From Sedimentisphaera salicampi (GTDB lineage Bacteria > Planctomycetota > Phycisphaerae > Sedimentisphaerales > Sedimentisphaeraceae), in the NCBI RefSeq assembly GCF_002117005.1, contig NZ_CP021023.1, positions 868,001 through 932,000 on the forward strand: 64,000 nt of DNA. Direction: 5' to 3'. Shown here piece by piece: positions 9,456 to 36,439 of the stretch. Each line of letters opens with the position of its first letter. The first letter of the stretch is position 1. Both the position numbers and the translations under genes were made by a program. The notes beneath the pieces were generated by a model. That model had not been told where the DNA came from, searched no databases, and worked only from the letters and a program-made list of their open reading frames with translations.

Positions 9456-9521
9456 AGCATCCTCATAATAAATCCTTCATTACCTTATGATTCAGATTAA
9501 GCAGTTTGGTAAGAAAAATCT

Positions 9522-9568: not shown

Positions 9569-9613
9569 TCATCTCTGAAGGAACAAAATCGAGGATAAAC
9601 TAACCGCTTAAAA

Positions 9614-9850
9614 TCAGCCAAACAGCGGAAGAATATGGCGATTATATATGTTGTTCGTAACATTTCTGGAGATGCAGTTTTCGTATTGATCCAGCGCAAG
9701 AGTATATTCTTCTCCCATTTCAGCAGCAATCTTATAGCCAACATGCAGCAATTGACGCATATCTGGACTGAAACCCTTCGAATCGGGCTCATGCCGGATA
9801 GCATCAGCGAATTTATCCGAGCCCCAGCGTTGAATCTCTCCTTCAATTAT
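9614..9850 (-). pseudogene. C-terminal remnant of a sugar epimerase/isomerase-like gene (UxaE-like tail)
   Basis: Between the sigma factor and the GH30-like pseudogene, one minus-strand frame reads as about 78 residues of convincing protein: IQRWGSDKFADAIRHEPDSK, then RQLLHVGYKIAAEMGEEY, then CISRNVTNNIYNRHILPLFG and TGA. This resembles the C-terminus I associate with tagaturonate epimerase (UxaE)-type proteins, but family assignment is from memory. The frame has no start codon and is blocked upstream by TAG, and it overlaps the stop of the glycosidase pseudogene by 3 bases. It is therefore a stub left by a deletion or recombination. A longer open frame at 9463-9846 in another phase is a shadow. 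Confidence 0.6.
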
Positions 9851-11826: not shown

Positions 11827-11937
11827 TGTCAAGTCCTGGTTTAAAGTTGACACTTTTCTTTTCTCTTTTCTATTACGATTTAACGATATATTCCGTAGTG
11901 GAGGGAGCCCGAAGGGCGACCGGAACGGAGGAATATA

Positions 11938-12876: not shown

Positions 12877-13168
12877 TTACAAGCTTTTCTAAATAAGCAT
12901 CTGCGAGAGCTTCTTTCAGCTCTTTGTTCTCTGCTTTTAATTGCTTTAACCGGTCATGTTCATCTGGTCTTTCCACGCGTATCCTCTTTGGTATTAAATG
13001 GTTTCGGCCGTATTTCTTAAGCCAACGCTTAACGGTGTGGCTTCCTGCTATTCCATAACGAATATTGGCTTCATTTATACATGAGAGTTTACCAGATTCA
13101 AGCTCATTTACCACTTGCAACTTAAATGCTTCACTATAACGAGTGTTTGTAGGTCTTTTGTTTTTCAT
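12809..13168 (-). CDS. IS3-family transposase OrfA (helix-turn-helix protein)
   Basis: The 119-residue protein has a helix-turn-helix (RYSEAFKLQVVNELESGKLS, then GIAGSHTVKRWLKKYG) and a C-terminal leucine-zipper-like coiled coil (LKQLKAENKELKEAL), as usual for OrfA proteins that bind the IS ends. It ends in GTC-A8-CTAG and overlaps OrfB by 68 bases. A TTGACA-N17-TAATTA promoter starting inside the terminal repeat (13185-13213) reads into it. Confidence 0.9.
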   Translation of the reverse strand: MKNKRPTNTRYSEAFKLQVVNELESGKLSCINEANIRYGIAGSHTVKRWLKKYGRNHLIPKRIRVERPDEHDRLKQLKAENKELKEALADAYLEKLVSDSRFEVTCEQFGLDSEEVKKN

Positions 13169-13184
13169 AAATATTCCCGAAATT

Positions 13185-13213
13185 TAATTAACATCTATTC
13201 TGATATCTGTCAA
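13185..13213 (-). promoter_or_regulatory. IS transposase promoter
   Basis: On the minus strand the inner end of the terminal repeat supplies TTGACA (13208-13213). A 17-base spacer separates it from TAATTA (13185-13190), 17 bases before the OrfA ATG. Confidence 0.5.
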
Positions 13214-13232
13214 CTATACTCAGGACTAGACA

Positions 13233-13633
13233 ACGACTGCCCATCGCCACTGGTCATTCTGATATCCCCAGCCGTCGGAACCCGGCAGAATAATTTGCCC
13301 CAGCGAAGTGTCGTTGAGCTTAAACTCAAACGGTACACCTGAAGGGCAAGCATAACGCAGGCAGAAAACCGGATTGTTGACCGGTGAAGTTATACTGAAC
13401 TCCCACTGCACCGGCGGCGACTGGCTGCCTCGCACCCCCAGCACAATACCGGCGCTGGATTGTTGGGCTTTGCGCGTGTCTATTGCAATGCCCTTTTGGG
13501 TATTTATATCTTCAGCATCCTCAGCTTCCACCCATACGGCCGCTTTTGATTTTAACCCACAAAACAACACATCTGAGAATGCAAAATTGCCCGCAAACAG
13601 CAAAGTACTTAAGACGAGAAAATATGCCTTCAT
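13233..13633 (-). pseudogene. GH30-like glycosidase, 5' part (signal peptide and carbohydrate-binding-like domain)
   Basis: This starts at an ATG (13633) with a signal peptide (MKAYFLVLSTLLFAGNFAFS). A beta-rich segment typical of N-terminal sugar-binding modules follows: KAAVWVEAEDAEDI, then GVRGSQSPPVQWEFSITSP and LGQIILPGSDGWGYQND. The frame runs into the IS end at 13232. The continuation is at 11826 and below. The two parts plus the amber-split segment would give a protein of about 790 residues. Upstream, 73 bases separate it from the GH2 gene. Confidence 0.7.
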
Positions 13634-13706
13634 CCGTTTGCCCTTTCTTTTGTTCCTTAGAATTAAAAATCAAGCTTAAAAATGACATTGTGAGCAGTAA
13701 AAAAAC

Positions 13707-16916: not shown

Positions 16917-19073
16917 TTATTCCGAAAGAGATGGAGGGGCTGCTGAATTATCACTGCCCCATTCCATATTGGGAATATCTGACATTACCATATCAAGGTT
17001 TCCGCCATCTTTTATCTGCGGATAGCTTAGCCAAGTTTTGGAAAGCTTTTTTCCATTCCAGCTTATCGACTGTATATATTTATTAGACAATGAGGCATTC
17101 TCAGCCTTAATTACTAAATCCCCTTTTTTCAAATGCAAAATCATTTTGGGGAAAAGCGGCGAACCGATAACATAATAAGGCTCTCCCATACACACAGGAT
17201 AAAGCCCCAGAGCGGATAAAACAAAATGGCTCGACATAGCACCAGTATCATCATCCATTGTTTTAAGCCAACCGGCAGGCTTTTTCTCATACACCTTTCT
17301 GATAACAGGACGACCGAATTTGCCGTGATTGTGATAGCGGCTCATAACGGTATCAGTAATGTAAAGTCTGGACCAATACTGAGTCTGGTATGGTCGGCCT
17401 AGATAGTTAAACAAAAAAGGATAAGCTAAAGGAGGCTCATTCAAAGCCATATGCTGCCAAGTATTGAAATAGTATTCCAAATCATCCGCCAGCTCTTCGC
17501 GGCTGCCTCTCAAAGAGGCAAGGCCTTGAATATCGTGCGGTATGAAAAAACGATAATGCCATAGGCTGCCTTCATAGAAATGAGCGTCCACTTTATTCAC
17601 AGATTCCTTAGGAACGCTCCTGCCCTCAGGTGTGAAAAAACCTCTGAGATTACCTTCCCCATCTACTTGGGACTCTGCCCAATATTTCTTGTAAGAAAGT
17701 GCCTTGTCTCTGAACATTTCAGCGTCGTCTTTTTCTCCAAGGATTTCTGCAATTCTCATAGCAATGTAATACTGATAAGGTTTTTCAACCTGCTCATTAC
17801 CATCTATAGAGGATACGATTCCCGCATACGCTTTTTTCAGTTTATCCTCTACGAGCTCTTTCTGAAACGCATCGAGTATTATAGTATTCATAAACTCATT
17901 TCTAACCGAAGGGGAAGGCCAGTATCCGTCTGCCCAGGCGGGTATGCCGCCGCCTGTAAACATTTCTAAAGCTGAAAGGGCTATATCTCTTGCAATATCA
18001 GGTTCAAGCAGTGATATAAGACTATACTTTCGATAATCATCCCAACTGCTCCAGCCGGAATAATACTCAAAACTAACATCTTGATTAACTTTATTGCGGA
18101 GAGTTTCTTCTTTGCCAGCCGGCCTGTAAAAACCGTCGCTGCTGGTAACATTATGAGGCAGCAGATAAGAGCGGTAGAGGCAAGTATAAAACAAATCACG
18201 AAACTCTTCCAGCTCTCCGCTAACATCAGAAATTTCAATTTTACTAAGTTTTTCTTCCCATATCTGTTCGGCATTTTCCCTTGCTGCTTCAAAATTCCAA
18301 CCGGGAAGGTCGCTGCTGCATTCCATCACAGCTTTGTCAATGCTCACCGGAGAAATGCCAACTTTAGCCTTAATAACTGCGTCCTTATTTTTCGAGGCGG
18401 GAGCGAATATACACCAGAGAGATTCTCCGCTGCGCTCAATTTTCTCAAAGCTCTGGTCAAACTTAACTGCAAAATAAAGCTTGTAGAAGCCGTGCCCGCA
18501 AACATTTTTTCCTTTGGAGAAGCCTGCTATAGTATCAGGGGCAATCTTATCCCAGCGTGATTCAATGCTTCCTGCATAACTTTGAGAAGGATCTATTTGT
18601 ATGCAGATATCCTGCTTGGAGGCAGGAAATGTATATCGATGAAATCCTACTCGATATGAAACCGTCAAATCAGCTTTAATTCCATTTTCAAAAGCCATGC
18701 TGTAAAAGCCCGGGGCTGCTTTTTCAGTGGATTTATCAATAGTGTCAATTGCTTTCTTTCCTAAAGACGGTTTAATTCTTACGCTTCCCCCTGCACCAGA
18801 GCAGCCTACCCCTCCGAGCCTCGTATGAGAAAACCCTTTTACTTTTTTGCAGGAGTAATCGTAGCCGGCGTGTCCGGCTTCGGATGTATCCGGACTTAAC
18901 TTCACAAGACCGAAGGGCACAGCCGCACCCGGGTAAAGCTGGCCGTGGTCGCCTTCTGTACCAACAAACACATCAACATAATCGATGACTCGTGCTTGAA
19001 GGCTGGCTGCGAAAAAAATAACAATTAACACTGAAAGTAGCTTCAACGCTTTTTCCGTAATCTGCTTTCTCAA
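16917..19073 (-). CDS. Secreted glycoside hydrolase family 92 (alpha-mannosidase family)
   Basis: The 718-residue protein has a signal peptide (KALKLLSVLIVIFFAASLQA) followed directly by the GH92 N-terminal signature VDVFVGTEGDHGQLYPGAAV. Further family segments are YSGWSSWDDYRKYSLISLL and, near the C-terminus, TMDDDTGAMSSHFVLSALGL followed by YPV. GH92 enzymes are calcium-dependent exo-alpha-mannosidases with an N-terminal beta domain and an (alpha/alpha)6 barrel. Here the usual NDD of the late motif reads DDD. It lies between the 1436-residue glucanase-like protein and the GH2 gene, consistent with breakdown of a mannose-containing heteropolysaccharide or glycan. Confidence 0.92.
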   Translation of the reverse strand: MRKQITEKALKLLSVLIVIFFAASLQARVIDYVDVFVGTEGDHGQLYPGAAVPFGLVKLSPDTSEAGHAGYDYSCKKVKGFSHTRLGGVGCSGAGGSVRIKPSLGKKAIDTIDKSTEKAAPGFYSMAFENGIKADLTVSYRVGFHRYTFPASKQDICIQIDPSQSYAGSIESRWDKIAPDTIAGFSKGKNVCGHGFYKLYFAVKFDQSFEKIERSGESLWCIFAPASKNKDAVIKAKVGISPVSIDKAVMECSSDLPGWNFEAARENAEQIWEEKLSKIEISDVSGELEEFRDLFYTCLYRSYLLPHNVTSSDGFYRPAGKEETLRNKVNQDVSFEYYSGWSSWDDYRKYSLISLLEPDIARDIALSALEMFTGGGIPAWADGYWPSPSVRNEFMNTIILDAFQKELVEDKLKKAYAGIVSSIDGNEQVEKPYQYYIAMRIAEILGEKDDAEMFRDKALSYKKYWAESQVDGEGNLRGFFTPEGRSVPKESVNKVDAHFYEGSLWHYRFFIPHDIQGLASLRGSREELADDLEYYFNTWQHMALNEPPLAYPFLFNYLGRPYQTQYWSRLYITDTVMSRYHNHGKFGRPVIRKVYEKKPAGWLKTMDDDTGAMSSHFVLSALGLYPVCMGEPYYVIGSPLFPKMILHLKKGDLVIKAENASLSNKYIQSISWNGKKLSKTWLSYPQIKDGGNLDMVMSDIPNMEWGSDNSAAPPSLSE

Positions 19074-19233: not shown

Positions 19234-22200
19234 TTATTCCTCTACAAGCCAGTTTTCAAGAAGAATCAGCAAATCATCTATTCCTACCTGATTGTTCGGA
19301 GGCTCTGCAATATCAGCGGACGGCTCGGCCGGGGCGACAAGCCATTGATCAGATAATATTGAAAAATCTTCTAAATCGACCTTAGTGCTCTGGTCAATAT
19401 CTGCAGGATTATAATGCCTGATAAAGCTCATATTATCGAGAAAAACGCTTGAACTATCCAATTCCATCCGCAAAACCTGTCCCTGGCCGTCCGGCAGGAC
19501 TAAATCAGGGATCACGGTTGTCTGCCAGTCTGACCAGCTTCCTGTTGTATTCAAATCTGCAGAAACAATATGATTTCCATCAAGAGATAATGTTAGCTGC
19601 TGACCGGAATAAGGCCCTGCGGAAAGAATTGAAAGGTCATAGTTTCCGCCTGCTAAATCAACAGTGTATTCAAGCCATTCGCCGGCTTCTGTATACACAG
19701 CAAATCCTTCATTTACAGCAGCAATCTCCACGGCTTCATCGGGCCGATACCCGCCATAAGTGTTTGTAGGAGTTGTATCAAAAAAGCTTATTTCCTGGCC
19801 GCCGGTATCAAAATTTTCAAATTCTATCTGGCCGGGAATTGAGTGCGGAACATTTTCCGGATAGGGAACCTGCTTTGCAAACTGCAACCAATCCAGCTGG
19901 AAGCCCTCCCCTGCAAATTCAAGCTCAACTGAAGCATTCTGCTTCTCCGGCAATGGTTCACAAAGTGCGGGTATGATTTGCCAGTTTGTTAATCCGCCTG
20001 TATTGGGAACATCAATCACGGCCGAAAGCTCATCATCAATACGAACAAGAATCTGCCCTCCTGACTGAACGGAAGCAGCTTTGGCATATACATCTGCAGT
20101 CCCTTCAATACTGTTCACTGTATAACTCAGCCATTCACCTGCCTCAATGCCGCCTACTGCATACTCACTTCCAGACTCACCAATATCAGCAACATCAACA
20201 TTTTCATAATACCTGAAATCGCCGATGCCGTTATCAGAAGAAGTGTCGTAATACGCTTTGCCGGCACCGCCGAAGTCGTATTCTTCAGCCTGAATCCTTC
20301 CCGGAATCGTTGGAGGAGTTTGTCCCCAATGCCCTTCTTTCTCAATCCTAAGCCAGTTCACATCAAGCCCGCCAAACGGAAATTCCATCCGCAAAACCTT
20401 ACTTCCAGCCGCAGGCAAAATTACATCATTCAGCACAAAAGTCTTGAAATTATCAGAAGAACCGGTACTGCTGACTGTAAACTCGGCAAGCATTTGTTCT
20501 TCTAAACTGCTCAATGCCATAACAGAAGAACTTTGTGCCTGATTTTCTAAAACAAAAGCCAAATCATCCACAGCGCTCCAGATCCAGCTGTTATCGCAAT
20601 GTACACGCAATTTTGTAATCCAGTATCCATCAGGGGCAGCTATCCCTGAGAAACTGTCATAGGTCGTGTTCCCGCTGGTCATATCGATATATCTTGAGGT
20701 GCTTGTGCTTCCTGAATCTTCTCCGTTGGTGTAATATGCGATAACGCGCCACCAGCCGTCGCTGCTGCCGTCTCTGCCGAGAATAGTGATGCCTGCGGCG
20801 ATAAGGTCTTGCGGCTCCATCCCGACAAAATCGCTGAATTCGAATTCATACCTGCTGGTATTTCCTTGGAGTCTTTTATCGCCTGAGACAGGCGTTCTCC
20901 CGCCTCCGGAAGCTGTATTATTGACGAAGCTGCTTGCGCCCGAGCTGCCGGTCGCAGTAACGCTAAATTGTTTCTGCCCCCCTGCAAAAACTGCGGTGAA
21001 AGATTCTGAGTTATTAAGCTCATTGTTATCAAAATTGAGCACCCCTCCATTACCGCTCAAGTATTTCTCTTCCACCCACGGCTTGAATTCTTCATACGTC
21101 ATAACCTGACTTGCTCCAAGGGTTTGTCCGATACCCGTTGTCCATGAGGAATTGCTCGAATAGCTCATACTGTAATCAACTTGATTAGTCTGAACATTTT
21201 GTTCGTCATACACTCCTGCAGCATCAAAAGAAGGGTAAGTGAAATGTTTAATTACAACTGGAGTTTCGCTTAAAGTTGTACTCGCCCGCAGGTACATACA
21301 GTAATTGTCTGAATCGGGAATATTAACTGTATAATTTAGCCACTCATCAGGCCCGATATCGGTTACCGCAAAGCTGTTATAATAATCAAAAACGCCACGA
21401 ATATCCACATCTTCACCCAACCTGAAAGCTTCCTGCTCGTTTCCTATTGTAGAATCGTGATAAGCAATGCCCTGCCCTCCTAAATCAAAACGTTCGGCTG
21501 AGATTTGGCCGGGGATATCAGCAGGAGTTCCGTCATAAGGCTCTGAAGTCATACTTATATTAAACAATGTATCTATTTCGTTTCCAGTGAGAGCATAATC
21601 AAACAAACGGATATCATCTATCCTGCCCTCATAGTATCCATCGGAAGACCAGTTGCTGCGGCCTATAAAATTTGAGCTTCTAAGGACACTCCTAGGCGGT
21701 GTGGCAGTGCCTGTTTTGATAAGCTGTGAATCTTTATAAATCTTCACATTACCAATGCTGTCAACTGTAACAGAAAAGAATTGCCATTTATTCAGTTCGA
21801 TCGCATTTGAAGCCCGAACCATACTCCCGCCGGTGGCATTATTATATACCTGAAAATATAAATCATCAGTATCACTATATCTTGCGGCTACTATATTATC
21901 TCCATTTGGCCCATTGCCGAGATCAAAGAATCTCGCATACGATTTCACCGCTGTTGGATATACCCAGAACGAAGCAGAAAAGCCATTGTCGAATTCATCA
22001 TAGCCTTCCGGTAATTCGATATACTCATCACCATCTAAACTCAGAGCATATCCCCGCATTCCCTGAACAGAATCATTATCGAATGAGAGGCCGTTTTTCA
22101 AGCCGGCATCCATCTGCTTGCCGGACAAATCAACAGCCGAAGTTCCATTAGGTGCATCGAGTTTGTAAAATCCAATACATTCCTTGTTTTGGTCTAAGGA

Positions 22201-23544
22201 TATCGCAGGGAAGCTGACATGGTCTTTGTAAGCATTGCCCGCAGGGGTAAGCCAGCCGTCATCATAAAACATCTCGCGATTTGTGCACCACTGATAGATG
22301 GAATATCTTTCCACAAAAGAAGCAGTAGAAAGCATTGAAAGCAGCTCTGCAATCTTATCGCCATTTTGCTGATAGGAGGGATGAGGAGTTGTCCAGTTGC
22401 AGCCGTTGTTCCACTCAGTAATCCAGAGAGGTCTTTTTGTTCTTTCGTGCACGGCTTTCAGCCAATTATACATCTGTGAGGCAGACCAGTTATTTTTATA
22501 AAAATGCACTGGTACAAAATCCACACGATAGTTCAAAGCATCGGCCTGATCAATAAAATCATACAGCCAGTTCAAGCCGCCGTCGCTGGGTGAAGGCGCA
22601 CCTAAACGCAGCCCGGATTCCAGCAAATTCGGCCATCTGTCAATCGCTTCTGATACTGACATATCAGCCTGATCCGGCCGGTCAGGTTCATTGAATCCGA
22701 GAACGTGGGTTACATTTTCCTTTGCGTTAGTTACTGAGTAGCTCGGCCATGTTGGGCCGTGCCTCATCGGAACATATTCCACATCCAGAGTAGTCTCTCC
22801 ACCATTGCCCCAGTTATACCGCCATGAACAATTCAAAGCCTCAGAAGCCGAACCTGAAACATTACTCGGAGTTCCGCCTGCCCAGCCTTTTTTGGTTGTC
22901 CAGTGCCATGGAAACACCCGTACAAAAGAAACAGATTTGTCAAGGTCTGCGGGCATAACGCCGATTTTCAATTTCTTATCATCTGCTATATAAACTCTGC
23001 TGATTCCTGTCCCGTCGCTATTTTCGGCAAATGTGGCCATATAGCCTCGTTTCAAAGTAAAAGAGCAGATCGAATCGTTCATTGCGCCCAACTGCTCAGT
23101 TTTGTAATAGGTATGCAGACCGAATCTTTGTGAGCTGCCGGTGAAGTTAATCCCGCTGTACACTTTAAGCGGCTCGTAATCCTCGCCATGCGGAATTACA
23201 ACAGCGCCGTTATGGTAACGTACTATTCTAATATTTGAATCCAATGCAGACTGTGAGCCGTTTACATAAATTTGGCTGAGATAAACTGAGGAATTGACCT
23301 CAGAAGGCTTCAGAGATGAAAAGAAAAGCCAAGCTTCCGCAGAATTCAAATTTATCTGACAGTTATCTAATACAGACGAGCTGCCGGAAAGGTGCAGCTC
23401 TGAGGTGCCGGTGATATTTACTGTAGTATCAGCAAGCGAGGTGTAGGTTTGAATATCATTATCTATAGTTATGGTTTCGCCAAAGCTTTTGCCGGCAGCA
23501 GAAAATATTAAAATGACAGCTATTAAAGACAGTAAATTTTTCAC
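19234..23544 (-). CDS. Multidomain secreted GH128-like glucanase with LamG, CBM6 domains, an inserted novel module and a dockerin-like tail
   Basis: The 1436-residue protein has a signal peptide (1-22), an N-terminal beta segment, and a catalytic-like barrel at about 195-445. Glu286 in VLGFNEPDRP and Glu377 in LWITEWNN fit acid/base and nucleophile of the GH128/Asl1-type beta-1,3-glucanase fold. LamG lies at about 450-665. The first CBM6 (676-1069) is split by a foreign-looking module at about 774-1000. Two further CBM6 domains cover about 1080-1224 and 1237-1376 (each with PGQI/PGRI, GGxxxxYxD and GEWLxYTV). A dockerin-like pair ends the protein (ADIDQSTKVDLEDFSILSDQ and QVGIDDLLILLENWL). 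The inserted module also occurs in the proteins at 25842 and 29620. Role: extracellular polysaccharide binding and probable glucan cleavage. Confidence 0.85.
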   Translation of the reverse strand: MKNLLSLIAVILIFSAAGKSFGETITIDNDIQTYTSLADTTVNITGTSELHLSGSSSVLDNCQINLNSAEAWLFFSSLKPSEVNSSVYLSQIYVNGSQSALDSNIRIVRYHNGAVVIPHGEDYEPLKVYSGINFTGSSQRFGLHTYYKTEQLGAMNDSICSFTLKRGYMATFAENSDGTGISRVYIADDKKLKIGVMPADLDKSVSFVRVFPWHWTTKKGWAGGTPSNVSGSASEALNCSWRYNWGNGGETTLDVEYVPMRHGPTWPSYSVTNAKENVTHVLGFNEPDRPDQADMSVSEAIDRWPNLLESGLRLGAPSPSDGGLNWLYDFIDQADALNYRVDFVPVHFYKNNWSASQMYNWLKAVHERTKRPLWITEWNNGCNWTTPHPSYQQNGDKIAELLSMLSTASFVERYSIYQWCTNREMFYDDGWLTPAGNAYKDHVSFPAISLDQNKECIGFYKLDAPNGTSAVDLSGKQMDAGLKNGLSFDNDSVQGMRGYALSLDGDEYIELPEGYDEFDNGFSASFWVYPTAVKSYARFFDLGNGPNGDNIVAARYSDTDDLYFQVYNNATGGSMVRASNAIELNKWQFFSVTVDSIGNVKIYKDSQLIKTGTATPPRSVLRSSNFIGRSNWSSDGYYEGRIDDIRLFDYALTGNEIDTLFNISMTSEPYDGTPADIPGQISAERFDLGGQGIAYHDSTIGNEQEAFRLGEDVDIRGVFDYYNSFAVTDIGPDEWLNYTVNIPDSDNYCMYLRASTTLSETPVVIKHFTYPSFDAAGVYDEQNVQTNQVDYSMSYSSNSSWTTGIGQTLGASQVMTYEEFKPWVEEKYLSGNGGVLNFDNNELNNSESFTAVFAGGQKQFSVTATGSSGASSFVNNTASGGGRTPVSGDKRLQGNTSRYEFEFSDFVGMEPQDLIAAGITILGRDGSSDGWWRVIAYYTNGEDSGSTSTSRYIDMTSGNTTYDSFSGIAAPDGYWITKLRVHCDNSWIWSAVDDLAFVLENQAQSSSVMALSSLEEQMLAEFTVSSTGSSDNFKTFVLNDVILPAAGSKVLRMEFPFGGLDVNWLRIEKEGHWGQTPPTIPGRIQAEEYDFGGAGKAYYDTSSDNGIGDFRYYENVDVADIGESGSEYAVGGIEAGEWLSYTVNSIEGTADVYAKAASVQSGGQILVRIDDELSAVIDVPNTGGLTNWQIIPALCEPLPEKQNASVELEFAGEGFQLDWLQFAKQVPYPENVPHSIPGQIEFENFDTGGQEISFFDTTPTNTYGGYRPDEAVEIAAVNEGFAVYTEAGEWLEYTVDLAGGNYDLSILSAGPYSGQQLTLSLDGNHIVSADLNTTGSWSDWQTTVIPDLVLPDGQGQVLRMELDSSSVFLDNMSFIRHYNPADIDQSTKVDLEDFSILSDQWLVAPAEPSADIAEPPNNQVGIDDLLILLENWLVEE
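20542..21225 (-). repeat. Copy 1 of the shared ~227-residue module (inside CBM6)
   Basis: It encodes residues 774-1000 of the 1436-residue protein. Landmarks are AAGVYDEQNVQTNQVDYSMS, WTTGIGQTLG, KRLQGN, ITILGRDGSS, APDGYWITKLRVHCDNSW and DDLAFV. It is strikingly similar at DNA level to copy 2, with long identical stretches (for example around 20577-20625 versus 27323-27371), indicating a recent copying event. Confidence 0.8.
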
Positions 23545-23682
23545 GTCTCATTCCTTATAATTATTTCTGAATAAATTAGATTTTTACGCAGTTGCTGAAT
23601 AAATCCTGGGCTGAATTAAAGTTTCGGATTGATGCAGAAAAAGCTTCACATTTGCGTTGAGCAAAAGATCCCCTTGCACACA

Positions 23683-23734
23683 GAAAAAAATCATCTGGAA
23701 CCGATCAGCCCGTATTGGACTACCGGTTCCAGAT
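23683..23734 (-). terminator. Intrinsic terminator after the 682-residue LamG protein gene
   Basis: On the minus strand a perfect 11-bp stem (ATCTGGAACCG / CGGTTCCAGAT; arms 23724-23734 and 23693-23703) with a 20-base loop is followed by a T7 tract (23684-23690). It begins 11 bases after the stop at 23745. Confidence 0.8.
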
Positions 23735-23744
23735 AAAGGTTTTA

Positions 23745-25793
23745 TTATGGACACTCAGGGTATAGCCCGCAGCTTAGCCAATTCCCGGCAAGAGCGGTAA
23801 AATCAGAGATATCGATAACGCAATCAGGCTCAAAGCCTTCCTGCCCTATCACAAGGCCGGTGTTGGAATTTGCAACATCGAGCTGGGATTCATAATCTAA
23901 TATGCATGATTTCACCCCTGTAACATCATAGTACATATCAGCTACAGCGAATTTATCTGCTGCATAGTTTAGAATCTGAACATCATCCAGTTCACTGCCG
24001 CTGAGCGGGTCAAATTCTTCGTTTACAGAAGGGTTATCAACAGCGCCAAGCATAATCATACTTTCAGCGCCAGAGGACAGGCTGCCGCTGTCGGAAGCCT
24101 TCTCTAATCCGTTGAAATAGACTTTACCTTCTGAGCCGTCAAAAGTTGCTGTTACCAAAGTCCACTCATCAACCGGAAGTGATTCGCCAGTCCATGCGCT
24201 CAGGTTGCTGTAGTTGTAAAAACGAACAGTTCCGCCCGGAAATTCATTTCTAATAATCAAACTCCATCGCATAGCGCTGTCCCAGCTGTCTCGCTTGCTT
24301 ACAATGCCTTTATGCGATGAAGTATCTCCATCCCATTTAACCCAGGCGCTTACAGTAAGCTGATTTGAATACTTGGAAGGATCCCATGTGCCCGCTTGTG
24401 CCCAGCTGTTTACCTCATCAATCAGTACTGAATCACCAACGATACCAGCATTAAATGCAGGGGTTCCGTTGGGGTCTGCGGGATGATAAACATCATCATC
24501 GGTGCTTACATCAAGATACTGGCCGCCGGAATAATCTGCCTGATCAAATGTCCAGTGGGCCATCTGCCTTTTTACAGCCGCTTTGGCAACACTGGAAGTG
24601 GTTGTGCCTCCGTCATTGGTGATAACGCAATAGTAGAATCCTTCATCGGCAGCAGCTATGTCTGCTAAGCTGAGAATGCTTGAACTGCTGCCTGCCTCCA
24701 CGTCATCTTCGGGGGTCTCGTTTGAATTATCATCAGATTTATACCAGAGATACTGTTCAGGAGAGACGCTGCTTACTTCAACAGAAAGCTCAGCATCCTC
24801 TCCAGCATCTTTGAGAACATCTGCCGGCTGGCTAAGGATAACCGGAACGCTTGAAAGCGAATCAAAGCTCCACACAGGCCCGATGATCTTATTTTCATCT
24901 ACGTCTTCAAGCTCACTTAACCCTGCTGTAAAGCTCTGCTCGTATCCGTCAACAGCCTCCACAACTGCCCACTGATAAGAAGTATCATAATTGAGGCCTG
25001 AAACGGTATATTCTGAGGAAGGATCTTCAGTGCCCGGGTCTTCGCCGGCAGCGCCAACATAATAAAGGTTCGGGTCTTCCCCACCGGTAGTCATAAAAAC
25101 ATACTGATCAACAATATCAGGGTTTACCGCATATTCATCATTGATATCCGGTGCTGCCTGCCAGCTCAAATCTGCGTCAACACTGTTTGCTTGAGCAGTT
25201 TGGCTTACTGAAGGGTCGTAAGGCTTATTGCTGAGATCCAATACGAAATTGGTTACCATCACACGGCCTCCGCCGCCTTCCTGCACATTTCTAAGCCGAA
25301 TTCCAAGCTCTTTACCTGCAATCTCCGGCTTATCGGCTATATCAAATGATATTTGATGAGATTTCCATGTTCCGGAGCTGTTATCAAGTTGTGAATACAC
25401 GCCAACAGCTCCCGAACCATCTACTGCAAACAGCTCAACATACAAACCCCATGTCCATGTTAACGGGTATGAGTTGAAGGTAAGTTCATATACTTTACCT
25501 GCCTGTATAGTATGAGTTGTTTCTTGGGAAAGAATAGCTGTCCAGTGGTTATAACTGATCCGTCCTGAAATATCTTTCCCGTTAGGGGGAATCGGCGCGC
25601 CTTGATCCGTTGGCACGACAACATTTGTGTAGCCGGTACCCTCCCATGCAAGAGCATCATCTATGCCTCGAGCCGTCATACTTTCACTGCCTGTTCCATC
25701 GAGATCGAAATCAGGATTGGTAATAATATTTGCCGCCTGCACTGACACAAAGCTTATCAGCATCAGTATTGAAAATAATTTTATTCTTTTCAT
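23745..25793 (-). CDS. Secreted CBM4/9-like, FN3-like, Ig-like, LamG protein with dockerin-like tail
   Basis: The 682-residue protein has a signal peptide (KLFSILMLISFVSVQA) and an N-terminal jelly-roll module resembling CBM4/9 at about 21-195 (NIITNPDFDLDGTGSES, then AGKVYELTFNSYPLTW). An FN3-like region follows (YDPSVSQTAQANSVDADLSW), then an Ig-like domain (PADVLKDAGEDAELSVEVSS, DEGFYYCVITNDGG), a LamG domain (MAHWTFDQADYSGGQ, then LTVSAWVKWDG and DDVQILNYA) and a single dockerin-like motif (DCVIDISDFTALAGNWL). No catalytic domain is visible, so it is probably a glycan-binding or surface protein. From the FN3-like region through LamG it is a near-duplicate of the next gene (25842-28046), while the N-terminal module differs completely. 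Confidence 0.85.
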   Translation of the reverse strand: MKRIKLFSILMLISFVSVQAANIITNPDFDLDGTGSESMTARGIDDALAWEGTGYTNVVVPTDQGAPIPPNGKDISGRISYNHWTAILSQETTHTIQAGKVYELTFNSYPLTWTWGLYVELFAVDGSGAVGVYSQLDNSSGTWKSHQISFDIADKPEIAGKELGIRLRNVQEGGGGRVMVTNFVLDLSNKPYDPSVSQTAQANSVDADLSWQAAPDINDEYAVNPDIVDQYVFMTTGGEDPNLYYVGAAGEDPGTEDPSSEYTVSGLNYDTSYQWAVVEAVDGYEQSFTAGLSELEDVDENKIIGPVWSFDSLSSVPVILSQPADVLKDAGEDAELSVEVSSVSPEQYLWYKSDDNSNETPEDDVEAGSSSSILSLADIAAADEGFYYCVITNDGGTTTSSVAKAAVKRQMAHWTFDQADYSGGQYLDVSTDDDVYHPADPNGTPAFNAGIVGDSVLIDEVNSWAQAGTWDPSKYSNQLTVSAWVKWDGDTSSHKGIVSKRDSWDSAMRWSLIIRNEFPGGTVRFYNYSNLSAWTGESLPVDEWTLVTATFDGSEGKVYFNGLEKASDSGSLSSGAESMIMLGAVDNPSVNEEFDPLSGSELDDVQILNYAADKFAVADMYYDVTGVKSCILDYESQLDVANSNTGLVIGQEGFEPDCVIDISDFTALAGNWLSCGLYPECP
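23932..25228. repeat. Long direct repeat, copy 1 (pairs with 25999-27283)
   Basis: This covers the FN3-like, Ig and LamG coding part of the 682-residue protein. Long runs are identical to 25999-27283, with scattered substitutions and small indels and the most divergence inside LamG. The two copies lie head-to-tail about 2.07 kb apart, indicating tandem duplication. Confidence 0.85.
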
Positions 25794-25841
25794 TTTTTCA
25801 TCCTTCTACAATTATATGTTTTAACCTGACAACTTAATTTT

Positions 25842-28046
25842 CTACTCTGCCGGATACAATCCGTCTGTCATCCAGTTGGCTGCTAATTCTGCAAAATCAT
25901 AAAGATTAACTTTGCAGTCTGGAGAACCATCAGGCCCGCTTACATCCAGCCCGTCTGCATATTCTTTAATACAAACATTTTCACCGGTGAAAGAGCTGTA
26001 CATATCAGCTACAGCGAATTTATCTGCTGCATAGTTTAGAATCTGAACATCGTCCAGTTCACTCTCCAAAGGCAGCACACTGCCGGTTGCCGGATTTTCA
26101 AGCGCACCAAGCATAATCATACTGTCTGCACCATCATTCAGGCCGCCTTCAGCCGACTGCTGTTCTACGCCGTTATAATAAATCTTCCCTGTTTGGCCGT
26201 CGTGGGTTACAGCAATAAAGATCCATTCATCTACCGGCAAAACATCGCTCGGCCATAGATCAATCCCGCCGTTGGTGTAGAAACGTACAGTGCCATTATT
26301 TCTCATAGTTAAAGACCATCGCATATTATCACCCCAGCTGTCTCGCTTGCTGACAATGCCGTGATTATCTGAGGCTTCTCCATCCCATTTAACCCAGGCG
26401 CTTACAGTAAGCTGATTTGAATATTTGGAAGGATCCCATGTGCCCGCTTGTGCCCAGCTGTTTACCTCATCAATCAGGACAGAATCACCATCAATGCCGG
26501 CATTAAACGCAGGGGTTCCGTTGGGGTCTGCGGGATGATAAACATCATCATCGGTGCTTACATCAAGATACTGACCGCCGGAATAATCTGCCTGATCAAA
26601 TGTCCAGTGCGCCATCTGCCTTTTTACAGCCGCTTTGGCAACACTGGAAGTGGTTGTGCCGCCGTCATTGGTGATAACGCAATAGTAGAATCCTTCATCA
26701 GCAGCAGCCATGTCTGCTAAGCTGAGAATGTTTGAAGTGCTGCCTGCCTCGACGTCATCTTCGGGGGTCTCGTTTGAATTATCATCAGATTTATACCAGA
26801 GATACTGTTCAGGAGAAACGCTGCTTACTTCAACAGAAAGCTCAGCATCTTCTCCAGCATCTTTGAGAACATCTGCCGGCTGCGAATCTATAACGGGAAC
26901 GCTTGAAAGCGAATCAAAGCTCCACACTGATCCGATAATATTATTCTCATCAACATCTTCAAGCTCACTTACCCCTGCTGTAAAGCTCTGCTCGTATCCG
27001 TCAACAGCCTCTACAACGGCCCACTGATAAGAAGAATCATAATTGAGGCCTGAAACGGTATATTCTGAAAAAGGATCTTCAGTGCCCGGGTCTTCGCCGG
27101 CAGCGCCAACATAATAAAGATTCGGGTCTTCTGCGCCGGTAGTCATAAAAATGTACTGATCAACAATATCAGGGTTCACGGCATACTGATCAGTTGAGTC
27201 TGGGCCGGCCTGCCAGCTCAAAACAGCCTCAACTCCGCTGCTGCCTTGCGAAACTTGGCTTACAGAGGGGCTGTAGGGCTTATAAGAAGACTTAAACACG
27301 AAGCCCAAATCATCTGCAGCGCTCCATGTCCAGCTGTTATCGCAATGTACACGCAATTTTGTAATCCAGTATCCCTCAGGCGCCCTTATTCCTGAGAAAC
27401 TGTCCTCGCTCGTGTCTCCGCTGCTCATATTTATATATCTTGAAGTGCTTGTACTTCCTGAATCATCTCCGTTGGTGTAATAGGCGATAACGCGCCACCA
27501 GTCAGTGCTGCTGCCGTCTCTGCCGAGAATAGTGATACCTGCGGCGATAATGTCTTGCGGGTCCATCCCTGTAAAATCGCTGAATTCGAATTCATACCTA
27601 TTAGTATTGCCCTGGAGTCTTTTATCGCCTGAGATGGGCGTTCTATTACCTCCGGAAGCTGTGTTTTTAACTGTACCGCTCGCACCTGTATTTCCTGTCG
27701 CATTGACTGTAAACTGTCTCTGGGCTCCATCAAAACTCGCAACGAATGAGGCCGAATCGCTCATTTCCGCATTATCAAAATTGATTACTCCTCCATCACC
27801 ATCTAAATAATATTCTTCGACCATCGCCTTGAATTCTTCATACGTCATTACCTGACTTTCTCCAAGGGTTTGACCGATTCCCGTTGTCCATGTGCTGTTG
27901 TTGGAATAAGACATACTGTAATCAACTTGATTCGTCTGAACTTCCTGCTCGTCATAGATCCCAACAGCTTCAAAAGTGGCCGCGCTTGCTAATCCGCAGC
28001 CAAGCAGAAGAAATAACGCTAATAAAAACTTAATTCTTTTCATCAT
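25842..28046 (-). CDS. Secreted novel-module, FN3-like, Ig-like, LamG protein with dockerin-like tail
   Basis: The 734-residue protein has a signal peptide (KFLLALFLLLGCGLASA) followed immediately by the shared module at about 25-252 (EAVGIYDEQEVQTNQVDYSM, WTTGIGQTLGESQ, APEGYWITKLRVHCDNSW). Then come the FN3-like (258-370), Ig-like (PADVLKDAGEDAELSVEVSS) and LamG domains (MAHWTFDQADYSGGQ, SAWVKWDGEAS), and a dockerin-like tail (DCKVNLYDFAELAANWM). It lacks any recognised catalytic residues. It sits directly upstream of, and is co-oriented with, its duplicate at 23745, from which it differs by exchange of the N-terminal module. Two ATG codons are adjacent at the start (28046 and 28043). Confidence 0.85.
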   Translation of the reverse strand: MMKRIKFLLALFLLLGCGLASAATFEAVGIYDEQEVQTNQVDYSMSYSNNSTWTTGIGQTLGESQVMTYEEFKAMVEEYYLDGDGGVINFDNAEMSDSASFVASFDGAQRQFTVNATGNTGASGTVKNTASGGNRTPISGDKRLQGNTNRYEFEFSDFTGMDPQDIIAAGITILGRDGSSTDWWRVIAYYTNGDDSGSTSTSRYINMSSGDTSEDSFSGIRAPEGYWITKLRVHCDNSWTWSAADDLGFVFKSSYKPYSPSVSQVSQGSSGVEAVLSWQAGPDSTDQYAVNPDIVDQYIFMTTGAEDPNLYYVGAAGEDPGTEDPFSEYTVSGLNYDSSYQWAVVEAVDGYEQSFTAGVSELEDVDENNIIGSVWSFDSLSSVPVIDSQPADVLKDAGEDAELSVEVSSVSPEQYLWYKSDDNSNETPEDDVEAGSTSNILSLADMAAADEGFYYCVITNDGGTTTSSVAKAAVKRQMAHWTFDQADYSGGQYLDVSTDDDVYHPADPNGTPAFNAGIDGDSVLIDEVNSWAQAGTWDPSKYSNQLTVSAWVKWDGEASDNHGIVSKRDSWGDNMRWSLTMRNNGTVRFYTNGGIDLWPSDVLPVDEWIFIAVTHDGQTGKIYYNGVEQQSAEGGLNDGADSMIMLGALENPATGSVLPLESELDDVQILNYAADKFAVADMYSSFTGENVCIKEYADGLDVSGPDGSPDCKVNLYDFAELAANWMTDGLYPAE
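25999..27283. repeat. Long direct repeat, copy 2 (pairs with 23932-25228)
   Basis: This is the FN3-like/Ig/LamG coding part of the 734-residue protein. It is nearly the same nucleotide sequence as copy 1 through the FN3 and Ig portions, with most differences between 26080 and 26390 (the LamG core). Confidence 0.85.
27291..27974 (-). repeat. Copy 2 of the shared ~227-residue module (N-terminal position)
   Basis: It encodes residues 25-252 of the 734-residue protein directly after the signal peptide. It is aligned over its full length with copy 1 at 20542-21225 and more distantly with copy 3 at 29707-30387. Confidence 0.8.
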
Positions 28047-28073
28047 AATAGCTCCTTAAAATTTAATTAAACT

Positions 28074-29533
28074 TCATAAAATTCGATTTGAAATCTTACC
28101 ATCATCTTGATCCAATTTAGGAACAGGCCAATTTGCTGATGGTGTATGTGATTCTTTGAGAAAATCCCAAAACCATTTAACAAGCTCAGGATTAGATTCA
28201 GCAAGGTTTTCCTCCTCACCAATATCATCAGCAAGATTATAAACCTCTACCGGCCTATCGAGACCATTGCAGACAAATTTCCAGTCCCCTTTTCTCGCTG
28301 CACAACGAAAGCCTCTTTCATGATCTTCCCAGTATAGCGGTCGACTTTGCAGCTCCGGCTGCGGCTGAGACAGCAGGCTGGGAACAACGCTCACACCGTC
28401 AATATTATTTGGCAAAGATGCGCCGGCCAGCTCTGCGCAGGTAGGCAGCACATCCGGGAAGTACCAAATATCATCGCTCACAGCCCCCGCTTTTATATGG
28501 CCAGGCCATCTAACAACCATTACTGTTCGCAAACCGCCATCATACAAACTGCGTTTTTTACCCCGCAGCGGGCCTGAGCTGTTGAAAGTGCCCTCATAGC
28601 GATTGGCTGCCCCGTTATCTGAACAGAAGAAAACAATAGTATCCTGATCAATTCCCATCTCTCTAAGCAGAGAAAACATTCTTCCCATATCCCTGTCCAC
28701 ACGGGTCAACATGGAAGCGTAAACTTTTTCCTTTTTCGACCAGCCAGCTTCATCAGCATATGATTCGATTTCAGGGATTTGGAAGGAATCATGAGGCAAG
28801 CAATAAGGTACATAAAGAAAAAAGGGCGCTTCACCGGCCCCGCGGCGTCTAATAAAATCCATTGCAAAATCAGTGAAAAGATCGTGGCTGTAATGTGATT
28901 GATTTGCAAATTTTTTTGTTGTGCCTGTATTACCGTTAAGTTTTTTCTTTTTCTGGTTATCCCATAAATATTCAGGTAGTGTGAATGAGCAAGATGCTGA
29001 TTGAGATACCCAAACCATTCATCAAACCCCTGCCGGTTAGGGAGGCCTGAAGTGTCAGGCTCCCCTAACCCCCATTTTCCAGTGATGCCGGTTGCATAGC
29101 CGGCATCCTTGAGAACTTCTGCGATTGTAACATCGTCCTCCTTCAGCGGTACTCGCGGCCCAGAGCCGCCGCTGCAAGGCACTGCGCCATGCTCGAGATC
29201 ACCCCAGTTGCCTCGAACTGTGGTGCGGCCTGTATGCTGGCCGGTCATTAGGGTGCTGCGCGCAGGGGCGCATATCGTTGCACCGGAATAAACCTGAGTA
29301 AACCGGATTCCTTCTCTGGCCATCTGGTCGATATGCGGCATCCGGATCCGATTCTGCCCATACAAGCTCAAATCACCATACCCCATATCATCCAGCATAA
29401 CAAAGATGATATTAGGTTTCCCAAAAGCAGATGAATCGGCCTTTGAAGATAATCCCAAATGATACCCTGCGCCGGCACCAACTATCGCTGCCAGACCCAA
29501 AAACTTACGGCGAGTTATTCTGTTTGATTTCAT
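28074..29533 (-). pseudogene. Tat-exported type I sulfatase, frameshifted
   Basis: The N-terminal half (start 29533) has a twin-arginine signal (RRKFLGLAAIVGAGAGYHLG) and the sulfatase signature with formylglycine-site Cys (ATICAPARSTLMTGQHTGR, C-x-P-x-R type), plus metal-binding FVMLDDMGYGD. Near 28975 the frame changes. The first frame reads to LAHSHY and then nonsense, while the correct continuation LPEYLWDNQ is in the next phase and runs to the stop at 28074 (FFCSDNGAANRYEG, SLYDGGLRTVMVVRWPGH). A missing C in a CCC run (TAC-CCT reduced to TACCT) would explain it. The whole protein would be about 486 residues. It would remove sulfate esters from a polysaccharide or glycan. The lesion could be a true mutation or a sequencing error. 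Confidence 0.85.
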
Positions 29534-29619
29534 ATATTGCTAACTATAAATCTTTTAGATATTATTTTGCAGGCCTAAGTTTCTGCCTGTCAATATTAAC
29601 TAAGAAAACGCAAAAAATA

Positions 29620-30450
29620 TTACTTGCGGCAGCTGCGTTTGCGTTTATTGAGAGAAACAATGCAGCCGCCAAGACCAAATATCGCTAATGTTGCCGGCTC
29701 TGGAACCGTTACAAAAGCAAAATCATCATGAGCTGACCAAGCGTCCTGATCGCTATGTACCCTCATACCAGTGATCCAGTAACCATCAGGGGCAACAATC
29801 CCCGAGAAACTATCCTGAGTAGTATCGCCGCTGGACATATTTATCGTGCGGAAGGTACTGCTGCTGCCGGTATCTGTGCCGTTAGTATAACGAGCAATCA
29901 CCCGCCAGTTAGCGGAGCCCCAATTGCTTCGACCGAGGATTGTCCAACCGATGGCCTTTATTCTTTCATCTGATTCCATACCAATGTAATCACTAAAGTC
30001 AAAATCAAGGGATGGCTGATTTCCCTGAAGCCGGTCTGCCCCTGAGATTGGGGTTCTGTCGCCGCCGGTCTCGTCGAACTTGAATGTGCCGGCTGCATCT
30101 CCAGTTGCTGTTACCGTAAATTGCTTGTCGCCCCCGTCAAATTTGACATCGAATGACGACGCATCCGCTATTGTACCCTCGTGATCGAAGTTAACAACTC
30201 CGCCGCGGCCGTTTGTAAAGGCTTGTTCAACCATAGGCTTAAACTGTTGGAGAGTTAAAATCTGATTATCACCCAGGGTCTGGCCGATACCTGTTGTCCA
30301 TGAGCTGTTGCTCGAATAACCCATATCGTAATCAACTTTATTAGACTGAACTGTCTGTTCGTCATACACTCCAACAGCATCAAAATAGGCTGCATTTGCT
30401 GCGCCGGCAACAAAAATCACAAACGTTAAAACTGCCATTACTCTTTCCAT
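29620..30450 (-). CDS. PEP-CTERM protein made almost entirely of the shared novel module
   Basis: I chose the ATG at 30450 (276 residues) because AAAGGAG precedes it and the signal peptide (MERVMAVLTFVIFVAGAANA) begins there; an in-frame start at 30492 adds 14 unlikely residues. Residues 22-248 are the module (VGVYDEQTVQSNKVDYDMGY, WTTGIGQTLGDNQ, GWTILGRSNWGSANWRVIA, APDGYWITGMRVH, DDFAFV). A PEP-CTERM tail follows (VPEPATLAIFGLGGCIVS, then KRKR). This is the minimal form of the module: one secreted domain plus a sorting tail. It lies upstream of the sulfatase pseudogene. Function unknown. Confidence 0.85.
   Translation of the reverse strand: MERVMAVLTFVIFVAGAANAAYFDAVGVYDEQTVQSNKVDYDMGYSSNSSWTTGIGQTLGDNQILTLQQFKPMVEQAFTNGRGGVVNFDHEGTIADASSFDVKFDGGDKQFTVTATGDAAGTFKFDETGGDRTPISGADRLQGNQPSLDFDFSDYIGMESDERIKAIGWTILGRSNWGSANWRVIARYTNGTDTGSSSTFRTINMSSGDTTQDSFSGIVAPDGYWITGMRVHSDQDAWSAHDDFAFVTVPEPATLAIFGLGGCIVSLNKRKRSCRK
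29707..30387 (-). repeat. Copy 3 of the shared ~227-residue module (stand-alone form)
   Basis: It encodes residues 22-248 of the 276-residue PEP-CTERM protein. Protein similarity to copies 1 and 2 is clear along the full length, but the DNA is more diverged than between copies 1 and 2. Confidence 0.8.
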
Positions 30451-30978: not shown

Positions 30979-33900
30979 CTATTTCATCACCTTGTCAATC
31001 TCGCCCTTAAACGATTCTGGAACTGCCTTAAATAATTTCTCAGTTCTGTTATCTGCCGGATCAACAGGGATGCAGGCGTCCGGATTTTTCGGGTTTCTCA
31101 GCTCGCCAGAGGCAGCTGCCTGCGGCTGAAGGCCTGAGCCCACGCCCAGCTTCTTCATAGCAGATACAGCCCTTGAAGAGGGCAGCATATCAACAGCATC
31201 AAGCCCGGCGGTTAGACCGAAATCTCTCTGCTTTGCGATATCTGAGAATATCCCGAGCCCGTTCATCGGGTCCACTGAATCAATGAAGCTCAGGTAGTCG
31301 TCATTTCCGCTTAAAGGATTGTTTCTGCAGAAATCGTACATATTCATACTCTCAATCTTCCTCTGCGGATCGCGGGACATATATATGCCCAGCTTTGGAT
31401 TGTAGCACCTTGAACCAACGTAGTAGAAATCTGTTTCCTCATCGAGGCGGAAGCCAGAGAACATATACGGGTTTCCAGTAACAGGTTCGGCTACCTGACT
31501 GCCTGTGCTGTCGAAAATTTCGTATTCACCGAAAGCCGAATAGCGGTATGTCTCTTTGATCCCTCCGGTGGAGGAGTCTGCCGAATACACGCCTACAACG
31601 CTGCCCTGGGCGTCCAAATAATAGCCGAAATAGTTTTCTTCAATTTCAGCTGCATATTCAGCGTCGAAACTTGTATCCATATATACTGCAAGGTCTGCAA
31701 GGTCTATCCTGTTTGGATCTGCAAAGTTTGCACCAGCGATGTATCCGCTGTCCTCAGGAAGAGAGAGCCAAGAATCGGCAATTTGCGATGCACTTGGCAG
31801 ATCAAGCAGGTTTTGAGGCCTTTCAATGTTTATCATAGTGATAATTTCCTCACCATTCTCGCCATAAACATACCTTGAAGTTACTTGCCCCTCAGAGCTG
31901 TATTCAGCAATAACGTTCCTGCCGTCATAGCAGAATGTTTTAGTAAGCTGGCCTTCCTCAGCTAATGCGCCTGTTCCGATAGCCTTGCTTATTCTTCTTC
32001 CAAATGCATCGTAGTTATACAGGGCTACATTCACAGTATTCGGGTCTGCGGTGAGGGAGTATTCACCGATCAGCCTGTTTTCGTTGTCGTATATAAACTG
32101 CCTGTCGCCGAAAACTTTGATGTTTCCGTTTCCGTCGTACTGAACCTGATCAGAGCCGACTGAAGTAAATCGTCCCATCCCGTCGCCGTCGTCGGAGTAT
32201 TGGATGGTTGTTCCGTTTTCGGTTTCGCTTTCACGCTGGAGGATGTTGTTGTAGTCGTAATCAACGCCGTCAGCGAAGGTGAGCCAGTAGTTCTTATCGT
32301 AAAAGAAATTCTGCACATACTGCTGCTGGCTTCTTGATACCACGTTGCCCGCTGGGTCTCTTGTGTATTCAACGCTCATTTCATTCGTGCCTGCAAACAG
32401 GTAGCTGATTTTTTCCAGATATATTCCCATATCGTCATCAGATGATCCTACATCTTCATAATCATAGAACGTCTCCGCTCCGCCGACGGTGAGCTTCCTT
32501 GTAGTTCTCCCGCTTTCATCTCGCTGGTAGTAAGCGAGCAGCTCGTTATTGGAGTCTGTAATGGTTTCCAGTCTTCCGGCTGCGTCGTATGCATAAGTTA
32601 CAAAATATCCGTCCGGATAAACCAGCTTTTTGAGCTTCCCGCCCGGGTAATATTCTCTGCTTATCTCCCGTCCAAATGCGTCGATTTCTTTCACGAGGTT
32701 GCCGGCTGAGTCGTACTCAAATTCGCATTTGCCGGCAGAAACGAGCCTTCCCATAACATCATACTTATAGAGCGTGCAGGGCACGAGCCTTACCGCATCA
32801 AATGCCGCTGTCCCGCTTACCTGTTCAAACTGTACTGCTGCCTGTTCGTTTTCAAACTCGCACATCCCCACATTAACCCAGCTCTCGCTTCCGGAGGCGA
32901 GGTTAATCTGTTTTGTGAATTTCGGGCTGCTGCTGTCAAATCCGTCGAAGATATTTACATTCATAGTCCCTGTAATTCCTGCGGGATAGTACACCTGCAC
33001 GAGATATGCGTCTTTGCTGATTGATGTCTGCATCGGGAAGGTTGCCCCGCTTGCTATAGACTGGCTGAACTGCCCGCCGAAGCTTGTGCTGTCCTGAACG
33101 GTTTGCCAGTTCTGTGAATCCATCATAGCAGGGATGCCCGAATCATCAAGCTGTATAACTCCGTCCTGATCGCCCTGAGACTCAGGAATCTTAACAGATT
33201 TGCCCCGGAGCAGGCCGTTTGAATAGTAGTCGTAGTAGTAAACAGCATCGGATGATTTCTTGTGTTTTACAAGATTCCCTGTTCCGTCGTACTGAAATAC
33301 TTCGGCTGTACCGTCGGGCATAATCACTTCTGAAACTCTTCCGTAGTTGTCGTAGTGATAAGTGGTAGTGCTGCCTCTTGGGTCTTTTATTGATTTCAGC
33401 TTTCCGTTTCCGTAGTAGGTGAAATCAGTTTTATTCCCGTTCGGGCCTCTTTCATAGCTCTCAGGGAGTTTGACAGATTTAACCCTGCCGCTGTTGTCGT
33501 AAGTGTATTCAAGATTCTTGAATCCTTCCTGCACAGCTTTGGGGTCTTTCAAATATTCTCTCTTGCCGTTCGGGTCGTAGCCGAGCTGGGTGATCCTGCC
33601 GAGAGAGTCTGTAATCTGAGTGAGCTGGTTTAATATTGAATAGCTGAAATCGTAGCTCAAAGCTGTATTCTCTGAGAAGCTGCTTCCAAGCTGCGAACTC
33701 ACCCTTGATACAAGGCCTGAGGGATTGTATGCAATCTTTGTAATCTCATTGAGGCCGTTGCTTATTTCGCGAATTCTGTCAGCATTATCGTAGGTGAAAG
33801 AAGTAACCTCACCCTGAGGCCTTACCACCTTTTCAACAAAACCGGTTTGCGGATTATAGTCATACTCCCATTTAGCATCCCATACGCCGGCGTTCTTATT

Positions 33901-36369: not shown

Positions 36370-36439
36370 TGTAATAACCTCATTTTCTATTTCGCATAAT
36401 ACAACCCCGGATAACACTTGCTATCCAATCTACAGGTTT

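What the first reader, a model, noticed from the sequence alone, without database searches (positions are those of the whole stretch)
20542..30387. An unrecognised ~227-residue secreted module used in three architectures
The same domain occurs (a) in the 1436-residue GH128-like protein, (b) as the N-terminal domain of a LamG/dockerin protein and (c) alone with a PEP-CTERM tail. Constant landmarks are YDEQ.VQ.N.VDY.M.YS.NS, WTTGIGQTLG, GGV.NFD, RLQGN, TILGR, WRVIA.YTNG, DSFSGI.AP and GYWIT..RVH. It is predicted beta-rich and extracellular. I know no family with this signature, and its reuse with different anchors suggests a new carbohydrate-binding or adhesion module.
Basis: partly seen in the sequence, partly recalled or inferred. 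Interest (0 to 1): 0.82.

Follow-up and report, generated by a model that had tools for sequence, protein, structure and literature searches.

The report
Unnamed secreted jelly-roll module, probably glycan-binding
Three neighbouring secreted proteins of a polysaccharide-degrading bacterium share a ~227-residue domain that belongs to a real family, absent from the curated libraries searched here and spread over two related phyla, which most likely helps the proteins grip sugar polymers, although binding has not been shown.

Summary
A 227-229-residue module occurs three times (window 20542-21228, 27288-27974, 29704-30384, all minus strand; c is 60% identical to a and b). The same three genes of a sister species carry it. 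It has no Pfam, NCBIfam or PDB sequence match. It is not confined to this genus: profile searches find it across Planctomycetota and Verrucomicrobiota as free-standing PEP-CTERM proteins, as the N-terminal domain of secreted multidomain proteins, and inside planctomycete PSCyt/PSD proteins. An HMM built without the window copies retrieves exactly the three copies (86-94 bits; next best 4). A confident AlphaFold model of a relative (pLDDT 82.5, pTM 0.85) is a beta-sandwich; its nearest solved folds are carbohydrate-binding modules (CBM22, 35, 16, 4, 6), none statistically significant. Two context findings favour glycan binding: copy a is nested inside a CBM6/35 domain of the GH128 protein, and in PSCyt/PSD proteins the module occupies the slot that CBM60 fills in 13 of 24 others. 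The genes lie beside a sulfatase, GH92 and GH2. Best reading: a new family of jelly-roll, perhaps calcium-stabilised, glycan-binding modules (about 0.6). Binding is untested; dbCAN/CAZy, InterPro and AlphaFold DB could not be searched.

The parts
20542..21228 (-). Module copy a (residues 773-1001 of the 1436-aa GH128 protein), nested in a CBM6/35 domain
27288..27974 (-). Module copy b (residues 25-253 of the 734-aa protein), directly after the signal peptide
29704..30384 (-). Module copy c (residues 37-263 of the 290-aa stand-alone PEP-CTERM protein)
21229..21525 (-). N-terminal half of the CBM6/35 domain interrupted by copy a
   Evidence: Joined with the other half it matches CBM_6 4-125/125 and CBM_35_2; alone it matches nothing
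20326..20541 (-). C-terminal half of the CBM6/35 domain interrupted by copy a
   Evidence: Matches only the C-terminal half of CBM_35_2/CBM_6 on its own
22228..22860 (-). GH128-type catalytic core (Glyco_hydro_cc) of the copy-a protein
   Evidence: PF11790, E 2.9e-38
21574..22035 (-). LamG-like domain of the copy-a protein
   Evidence: PF13385, E 6e-25
19876..20217 (-). Second, intact CBM6/35 domain of the copy-a protein
   Evidence: PF18099/PF03422
26028..26897 (-). Ig and LamG domains of the copy-b protein
   Evidence: PF13927, PF13385
29647..29709 (-). PEP-CTERM sorting tail of the copy-c protein
   Evidence: PF07589/TIGR02595 above cut-off; exosortase encoded in the genome
23745..25793 (-). 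Tandem paralogue of the copy-b protein with an HpiC1-like jelly-roll domain in place of the module
   Evidence: PF22825 E 2.6e-5, just under cut-off; DNA 93% identical to copy-b gene in places
28074..29533 (-). Sulfatase gene between copies b and c, split over two overlapping frames
   Evidence: PF00884 in both halves; intact 486-aa homologue in the sister species
16917..19073 (-). GH92 gene downstream
   Evidence: PF07971/PF17678
13707..16856 (-). GH2 gene downstream
   Evidence: PF02836/PF02837

Best explanation
The module is an independently folding, exported beta-sandwich (jelly-roll type) with one helix near its N-terminal third, and it acts as a non-catalytic glycan-binding (CBM- or lectin-like) module. 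In copy a it adds a binding face to a CBM6-bearing GH128 glucanase; in copy b it is the N-terminal recognition domain of an Ig/LamG secreted protein; in copy c it is held at the cell envelope or matrix by a PEP-CTERM/exosortase tail. Together they would keep enzyme, accessory protein and cell on the same polysaccharide, which a neighbouring sulfatase, GH92 and GH2 help to break down. The conserved N-terminal YD...N.VD and C-terminal DD.(A/G)F motifs may form a structural calcium site, and tryptophans particular to this genus are candidate sugar contacts. Shown: family, export/sorting signals, contexts, fold class by prediction. Inferred: ligand, calcium, joint action.
For: Nested inside a CBM6/35 domain of a GH128 protein in both species. 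Fills the PSD3-PSD5 slot of PSCyt/PSD proteins in three planctomycetes, a slot filled by CBM60 in 13 of 24 sampled others. An HpiC1-like jelly roll fills its slot in the tandem paralogue. Confident beta-sandwich model; about half of the 50 nearest PDB folds by my count are CBMs or CBM-bearing enzymes, best CBM22 with probability 1.00. Other partners across the family are LamG, F5/8C, PKD and Ig. Neighbours are sulfatase, GH92, GH2. Sedimentisphaerales are among the planctomycete orders with highest glycoside hydrolase diversity (PMC11131199).
Against: No binding data. No Foldseek match with E <= 0.001; target TM-scores only about 0.5. No sugar-contact residue is conserved family-wide: the most conserved positions are G, S, D, N, F, R, as expected for fold or calcium, not for one shared ligand. 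Free-standing PEP-CTERM members do not by themselves imply sugar binding.
Confidence: 0.6

Rival explanations
1. A structural or adhesive matrix (biofilm/S-layer-like) module that makes protein-protein or cell-cell contacts and has no specific polysaccharide ligand.
For: Copy c and many Verrucomicrobiota members are free-standing PEP-CTERM proteins; family-wide conserved residues look structural; jelly-roll matches include adhesins and the FlaA1 filament sheath protein.
Against: Does not explain why the module sits inside a CBM6 of a glucanase or takes the CBM60 slot in PSCyt/PSD proteins.
Confidence: 0.22
2. A catalytic jelly roll: an unrecognised polysaccharide lyase, hydrolase or cyclase domain.
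For: The size (about 215-230 aa) fits small jelly-roll enzymes; the HpiC1-like domain in the same slot is named after a cyclase; hinokiresinol synthase is among weak fold matches.
Against: No conserved set of likely catalytic residues beyond D, N and R in the family; one protein already carries a GH128 core; the nearest folds are CBMs, not lyases.
Confidence: 0.08
3. A divergent branch of an existing CBM or PEP-CTERM domain family that the libraries searched here are too insensitive, or lack a model, to show; not new.
For: CBM22 and CBM35 are the nearest folds; only Pfam, NCBIfam and PDB were searched, not dbCAN/CAZy, InterPro or ECOD.
Against: Thirteen members that are only 21-33% identical to copy c all give no credible hit, and the 215-aa core with its helix is longer than the CBM22/35 chains matched (132-159 aa).
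Confidence: 0.2

Closest known systems
CBM22 / CBM35 / CBM16 / CBM6 beta-sandwich carbohydrate-binding modules
   Same: Fold class of the predicted model; same kind of partner domains; found in the same or equivalent slots as CBM6 and CBM60.
   Different: No sequence match; longer, with a helix; TM only about 0.5 and Foldseek E not significant; no binding shown.
CBM60 (PF16841) of planctomycete PSCyt1-PSD3-X-PSD5-PSD4-PSCyt3-PSD2 proteins
   Same: Same position X in the protein.
   Different: CBM60 is a domain of about 90 positions in Pfam; the module is about 200-230 residues and unrelated in sequence.
HpiC1-like jelly roll (PF22825) / BT4411 hyaluronan-binding family (NF058548)
   Same: Occupies the N-terminal slot of the tandem paralogue of the copy-b protein.
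   Different: No sequence similarity to the module found; the Pfam match is just below, the NCBIfam match far below, the curated cut-off.
PEP-CTERM/exosortase-sorted proteins (TIGR02595)
   Same: Copy c and several Verrucomicrobiota members carry the tail above cut-off or clearly by eye; an exosortase is present in the genome.
   Different: The tail is a sorting signal, not part of the module; copies a and b lack it.

Membership tests
Named Pfam-A or NCBIfam domain family | HMM score above the curated cut-off on the module | tested here: not met
Family with a solved structure | Significant sequence or fold match to a PDB chain | tested here: not met
   No sequence match; no Foldseek E <= 0.001
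Carbohydrate-binding module (CBM, CAZy sense) | Discrete fold within a carbohydrate-active enzyme polypeptide | tested here: met
   Copy a lies in a protein with a GH128-type catalytic core; discrete beta-sandwich predicted
Carbohydrate-binding module (CBM, CAZy sense) | Demonstrated carbohydrate binding | not testable with these tools
   needs purified protein
Carbohydrate-binding module (CBM, CAZy sense) | Match to an existing CAZy/dbCAN CBM family model | not testable with these tools
   dbCAN not available; the CBM models held in Pfam do not match
CBM22/35/16/6 by fold | Beta-sandwich jelly-roll topology with significant fold similarity | tested here: inconclusive
   Best CBM22 1dyo, probability 1.00, TM 0.53 on target, but E 7.9e-3
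PEP-CTERM protein (copy c only) | PEP-CTERM tail above cut-off and exosortase in the genome | tested here: met
Dockerin/cohesin (cellulosome-type) system (copies a and b) | Dockerin domain match and a cohesin partner | tested here: not met
   No dockerin hit, no cohesin in the genome

The most novel reading that the evidence does not exclude
A new, phylum-crossing family of glycan-binding modules of the Planctomycetota-Verrucomicrobiota lineage that is used interchangeably with classical CBMs (nested in the CBM6 of a GH128, swapped for CBM60 in PSCyt/PSD proteins) and also exists as a PEP-CTERM-sorted cell-surface lectin, so that one ligand specificity links secreted enzyme, accessory protein and cell.
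Probability: 0.45. Interest if true: 0.6.

Novelty: new member of a known kind. Interest (0 to 1): 0.5.

Why it matters
Planctomycetota and Verrucomicrobiota are prominent degraders of complex and sulfated polysaccharides, and many of their large secreted proteins and PEP-CTERM proteins lack functional labels. A defined domain family with a stand-alone member, a confident fold and slot-swaps with known CBMs gives a small soluble protein whose ligand can be measured directly, and could put a function on many 'hypothetical PEP-CTERM proteins'. It would also bear on what the sugar-binding slot of the PSCyt/PSD proteins is for.

Tried and rejected
Mobile-DNA insertion as the origin of copy a: DNA similarity between copies stops essentially at the module edges, the nested state is shared with the sister species and I saw no element around it; not pursued further. 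A genus-only orphan: rejected. The extra own-genome hits at E about 5e-4: the two I inspected share only the PEP-CTERM tail region. Dockerin/cohesin anchoring: not supported. Phage or plasmid carriage: no relatives in viral contigs with the patterns used or in plasmids. The first genome-contig scan with genus-specific patterns found nothing. Literature searches found no description of this domain, but the library holds open-licence papers only.

Full report
WHAT WAS CHECKED. The three copies are real. On the minus strand the module covers 20542-21228 (a), 27288-27974 (b) and 29704-30384 (c), as residues 773-1001, 25-253 and 37-263 of proteins of 1436, 734 and 290 aa. Copy c is 60% identical to a and b over 227 residues; mean column identity is 80%. 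At DNA level a and b are 75-88% identical in blocks that stop essentially at the module edges. The window is part of a 3.19 Mb one-contig genome that holds only these three copies. A sister species (G325) holds the same three in the same order.

NO NAMED FAMILY IN THE LIBRARIES SEARCHED. Pfam-A finds the GH128-type core (E 2.9e-38), LamG, CBM6/CBM35 and Ig domains and the PEP-CTERM tail, but nothing on the module; NCBIfam and PDB sequences give nothing on it. The same holds for 11 aligned members, ten of them from other Sedimentisphaerales, and for 13 diverse members from two phyla; the few hits at E above 0.01 each concern one member and are unrelated to one another.

THE FAMILY. A profile of the three copies found two remote homologues in the same order and a marginal one in the phylum. 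Adding them gave matches in 12 of 161 genomes of the order (E down to 8e-66 for genomes not in the profile) and further planctomycete members (E 1.3e-29 and 7.7e-21). A public genome scan found 11 loci, ten from planctomycete assemblies and one from a Verrucomicrobia bacterium (L046), which is a free-standing signal-peptide/module/PEP-CTERM protein like copy c. In a sample of 289 genomes of that phylum 11 have a match (best new match E 1.1e-41), many of the full-length ones being PEP-CTERM proteins. Independence check: an HMM built without any window sequence hits exactly the three window ORFs (94, 90, 86 bits; next 4.2), and shuffled copies reach 7.4 bits at most. The family-wide signature is roughly V(G/S)xYD...N.(V/A)D - F.......AF....GGV - P(I/T)SG - G.T.L.R - DTFFGF.AP.G..I - DD(I/L/V)(A/G)F(I/V).

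ARCHITECTURES. (1) Free-standing with PEP-CTERM (copy c, L046, several Verrucomicrobiota proteins). (2) N-terminal, after the signal peptide, before an fn3-like domain and then Ig/LamG (copy b) or F5/8C and LamG domains (L036-L044), or before PKD and LamG domains (L045) (the fn3-like neighbours of P0002 and L036 are related, pairwise E 8e-6). (3) Nested in a CBM6/35 domain of the GH128 protein (copy a): the two flanks joined match CBM_6 over positions 4-125 of 125 (E 3.4e-5, somewhat under the curated cut-off) and CBM_35_2 above its cut-off; the left flank alone gives nothing and the right flank only the C-terminal half. (4) Between PSD3 and PSD5 in PSCyt1...PSD2 planctomycete proteins (L032-L034; Pfam tested on one, the other two by evident similarity). 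Of 24 other PSD5 proteins sampled from the phylum, 13 carry CBM60 and one a weak CBM6 in the 265 residues before PSD5.

FOLD. AlphaFold2 of copy c with 14 sequences: pLDDT 69, pTM 0.76. With relative L040 as query: pLDDT 82.5, pTM 0.85, a helix at 39-51 and some 14-15 strands. Foldseek against PDB gives no match with E <= 0.001. So the fold class is that of beta-sandwich CBMs and lectins, without membership of any one of them.

GENE NEIGHBOURHOOD. On one strand, in order of transcription: copy c - sulfatase - copy b - paralogue with an HpiC1-like domain - GH128 with copy a - GH92 - GH2. Promoter and terminator scans were no better than shuffled sequence, so an operon is only inferred from spacing and strand. 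An exosortase is encoded elsewhere in the genome; no cohesin was found. A published survey ranks Sedimentisphaerales among the Planctomycetota with the highest glycoside hydrolase diversity and most multimodular CAZymes (PMC11131199).

HOW IT PROBABLY WORKS. Exported; folds as a beta-sandwich, perhaps calcium-stabilised; binds a polysaccharide, so that enzyme (a), accessory protein (b) and cell envelope or matrix (c) meet on the same substrate. Shown: sequence family, export and sorting signals, domain slots, predicted fold. Inferred: calcium, ligand, cooperation. The strongest arguments are the shared slots (inside CBM6; in place of CBM60; an HpiC1-like jelly roll in its place in the paralogue), because domains that replace one another at one position often do a similar job.

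LIMITS. dbCAN/CAZy, InterPro, ECOD and AlphaFold DB were not available, so 'no named family' means Pfam, NCBIfam and PDB only. Model coordinates could not be inspected, so the calcium site and binding face are read from conservation alone. The slot survey is small (24 proteins).

Noticed in passing
window 28074-29533 (minus strand): The sulfatase gene between copies b and c is split over two overlapping frames here, while the sister species has one intact 486-aa reading frame (L016:7302-8762). Real pseudogene or sequencing error not decided.
   Followed up: partly
window 23745-28046; L016:8794-11040: Two tandem paralogues here correspond to a single gene in the sister species whose 5' part matches the 734-aa gene (90-95%) and whose 3' end matches the 682-aa gene (84-93%), as if recombination had fused them.
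   Followed up: partly
L016, module copies a and b (genes 11356-15453 and 8794-11040): In the sister species the 3' halves of copies a and b are up to 100% identical in 60-nt bins where the orthologues differ more, which suggests gene conversion between them.
   Followed up: partly
L006:404-3007 (own genome, about 78-80 kb): Tandem array of four small PEP-CTERM paralogues of about 195 aa.
   Followed up: no
window 30979-36417: 1812-aa RHS-repeat protein directly upstream of the module cluster.
   Followed up: no
L095, L097, L099, L100: Verrucomicrobiota proteins with only the C-terminal part of the signature (DTFFG...DD.AF) in large secreted proteins, one followed by what looks by eye like a GH16 catalytic domain; possibly a wider superfamily.
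   Followed up: no
window 11938-12876: A transposase-type integrase-core (rve) gene lies beside the GH2 end of the cluster.
   Followed up: no
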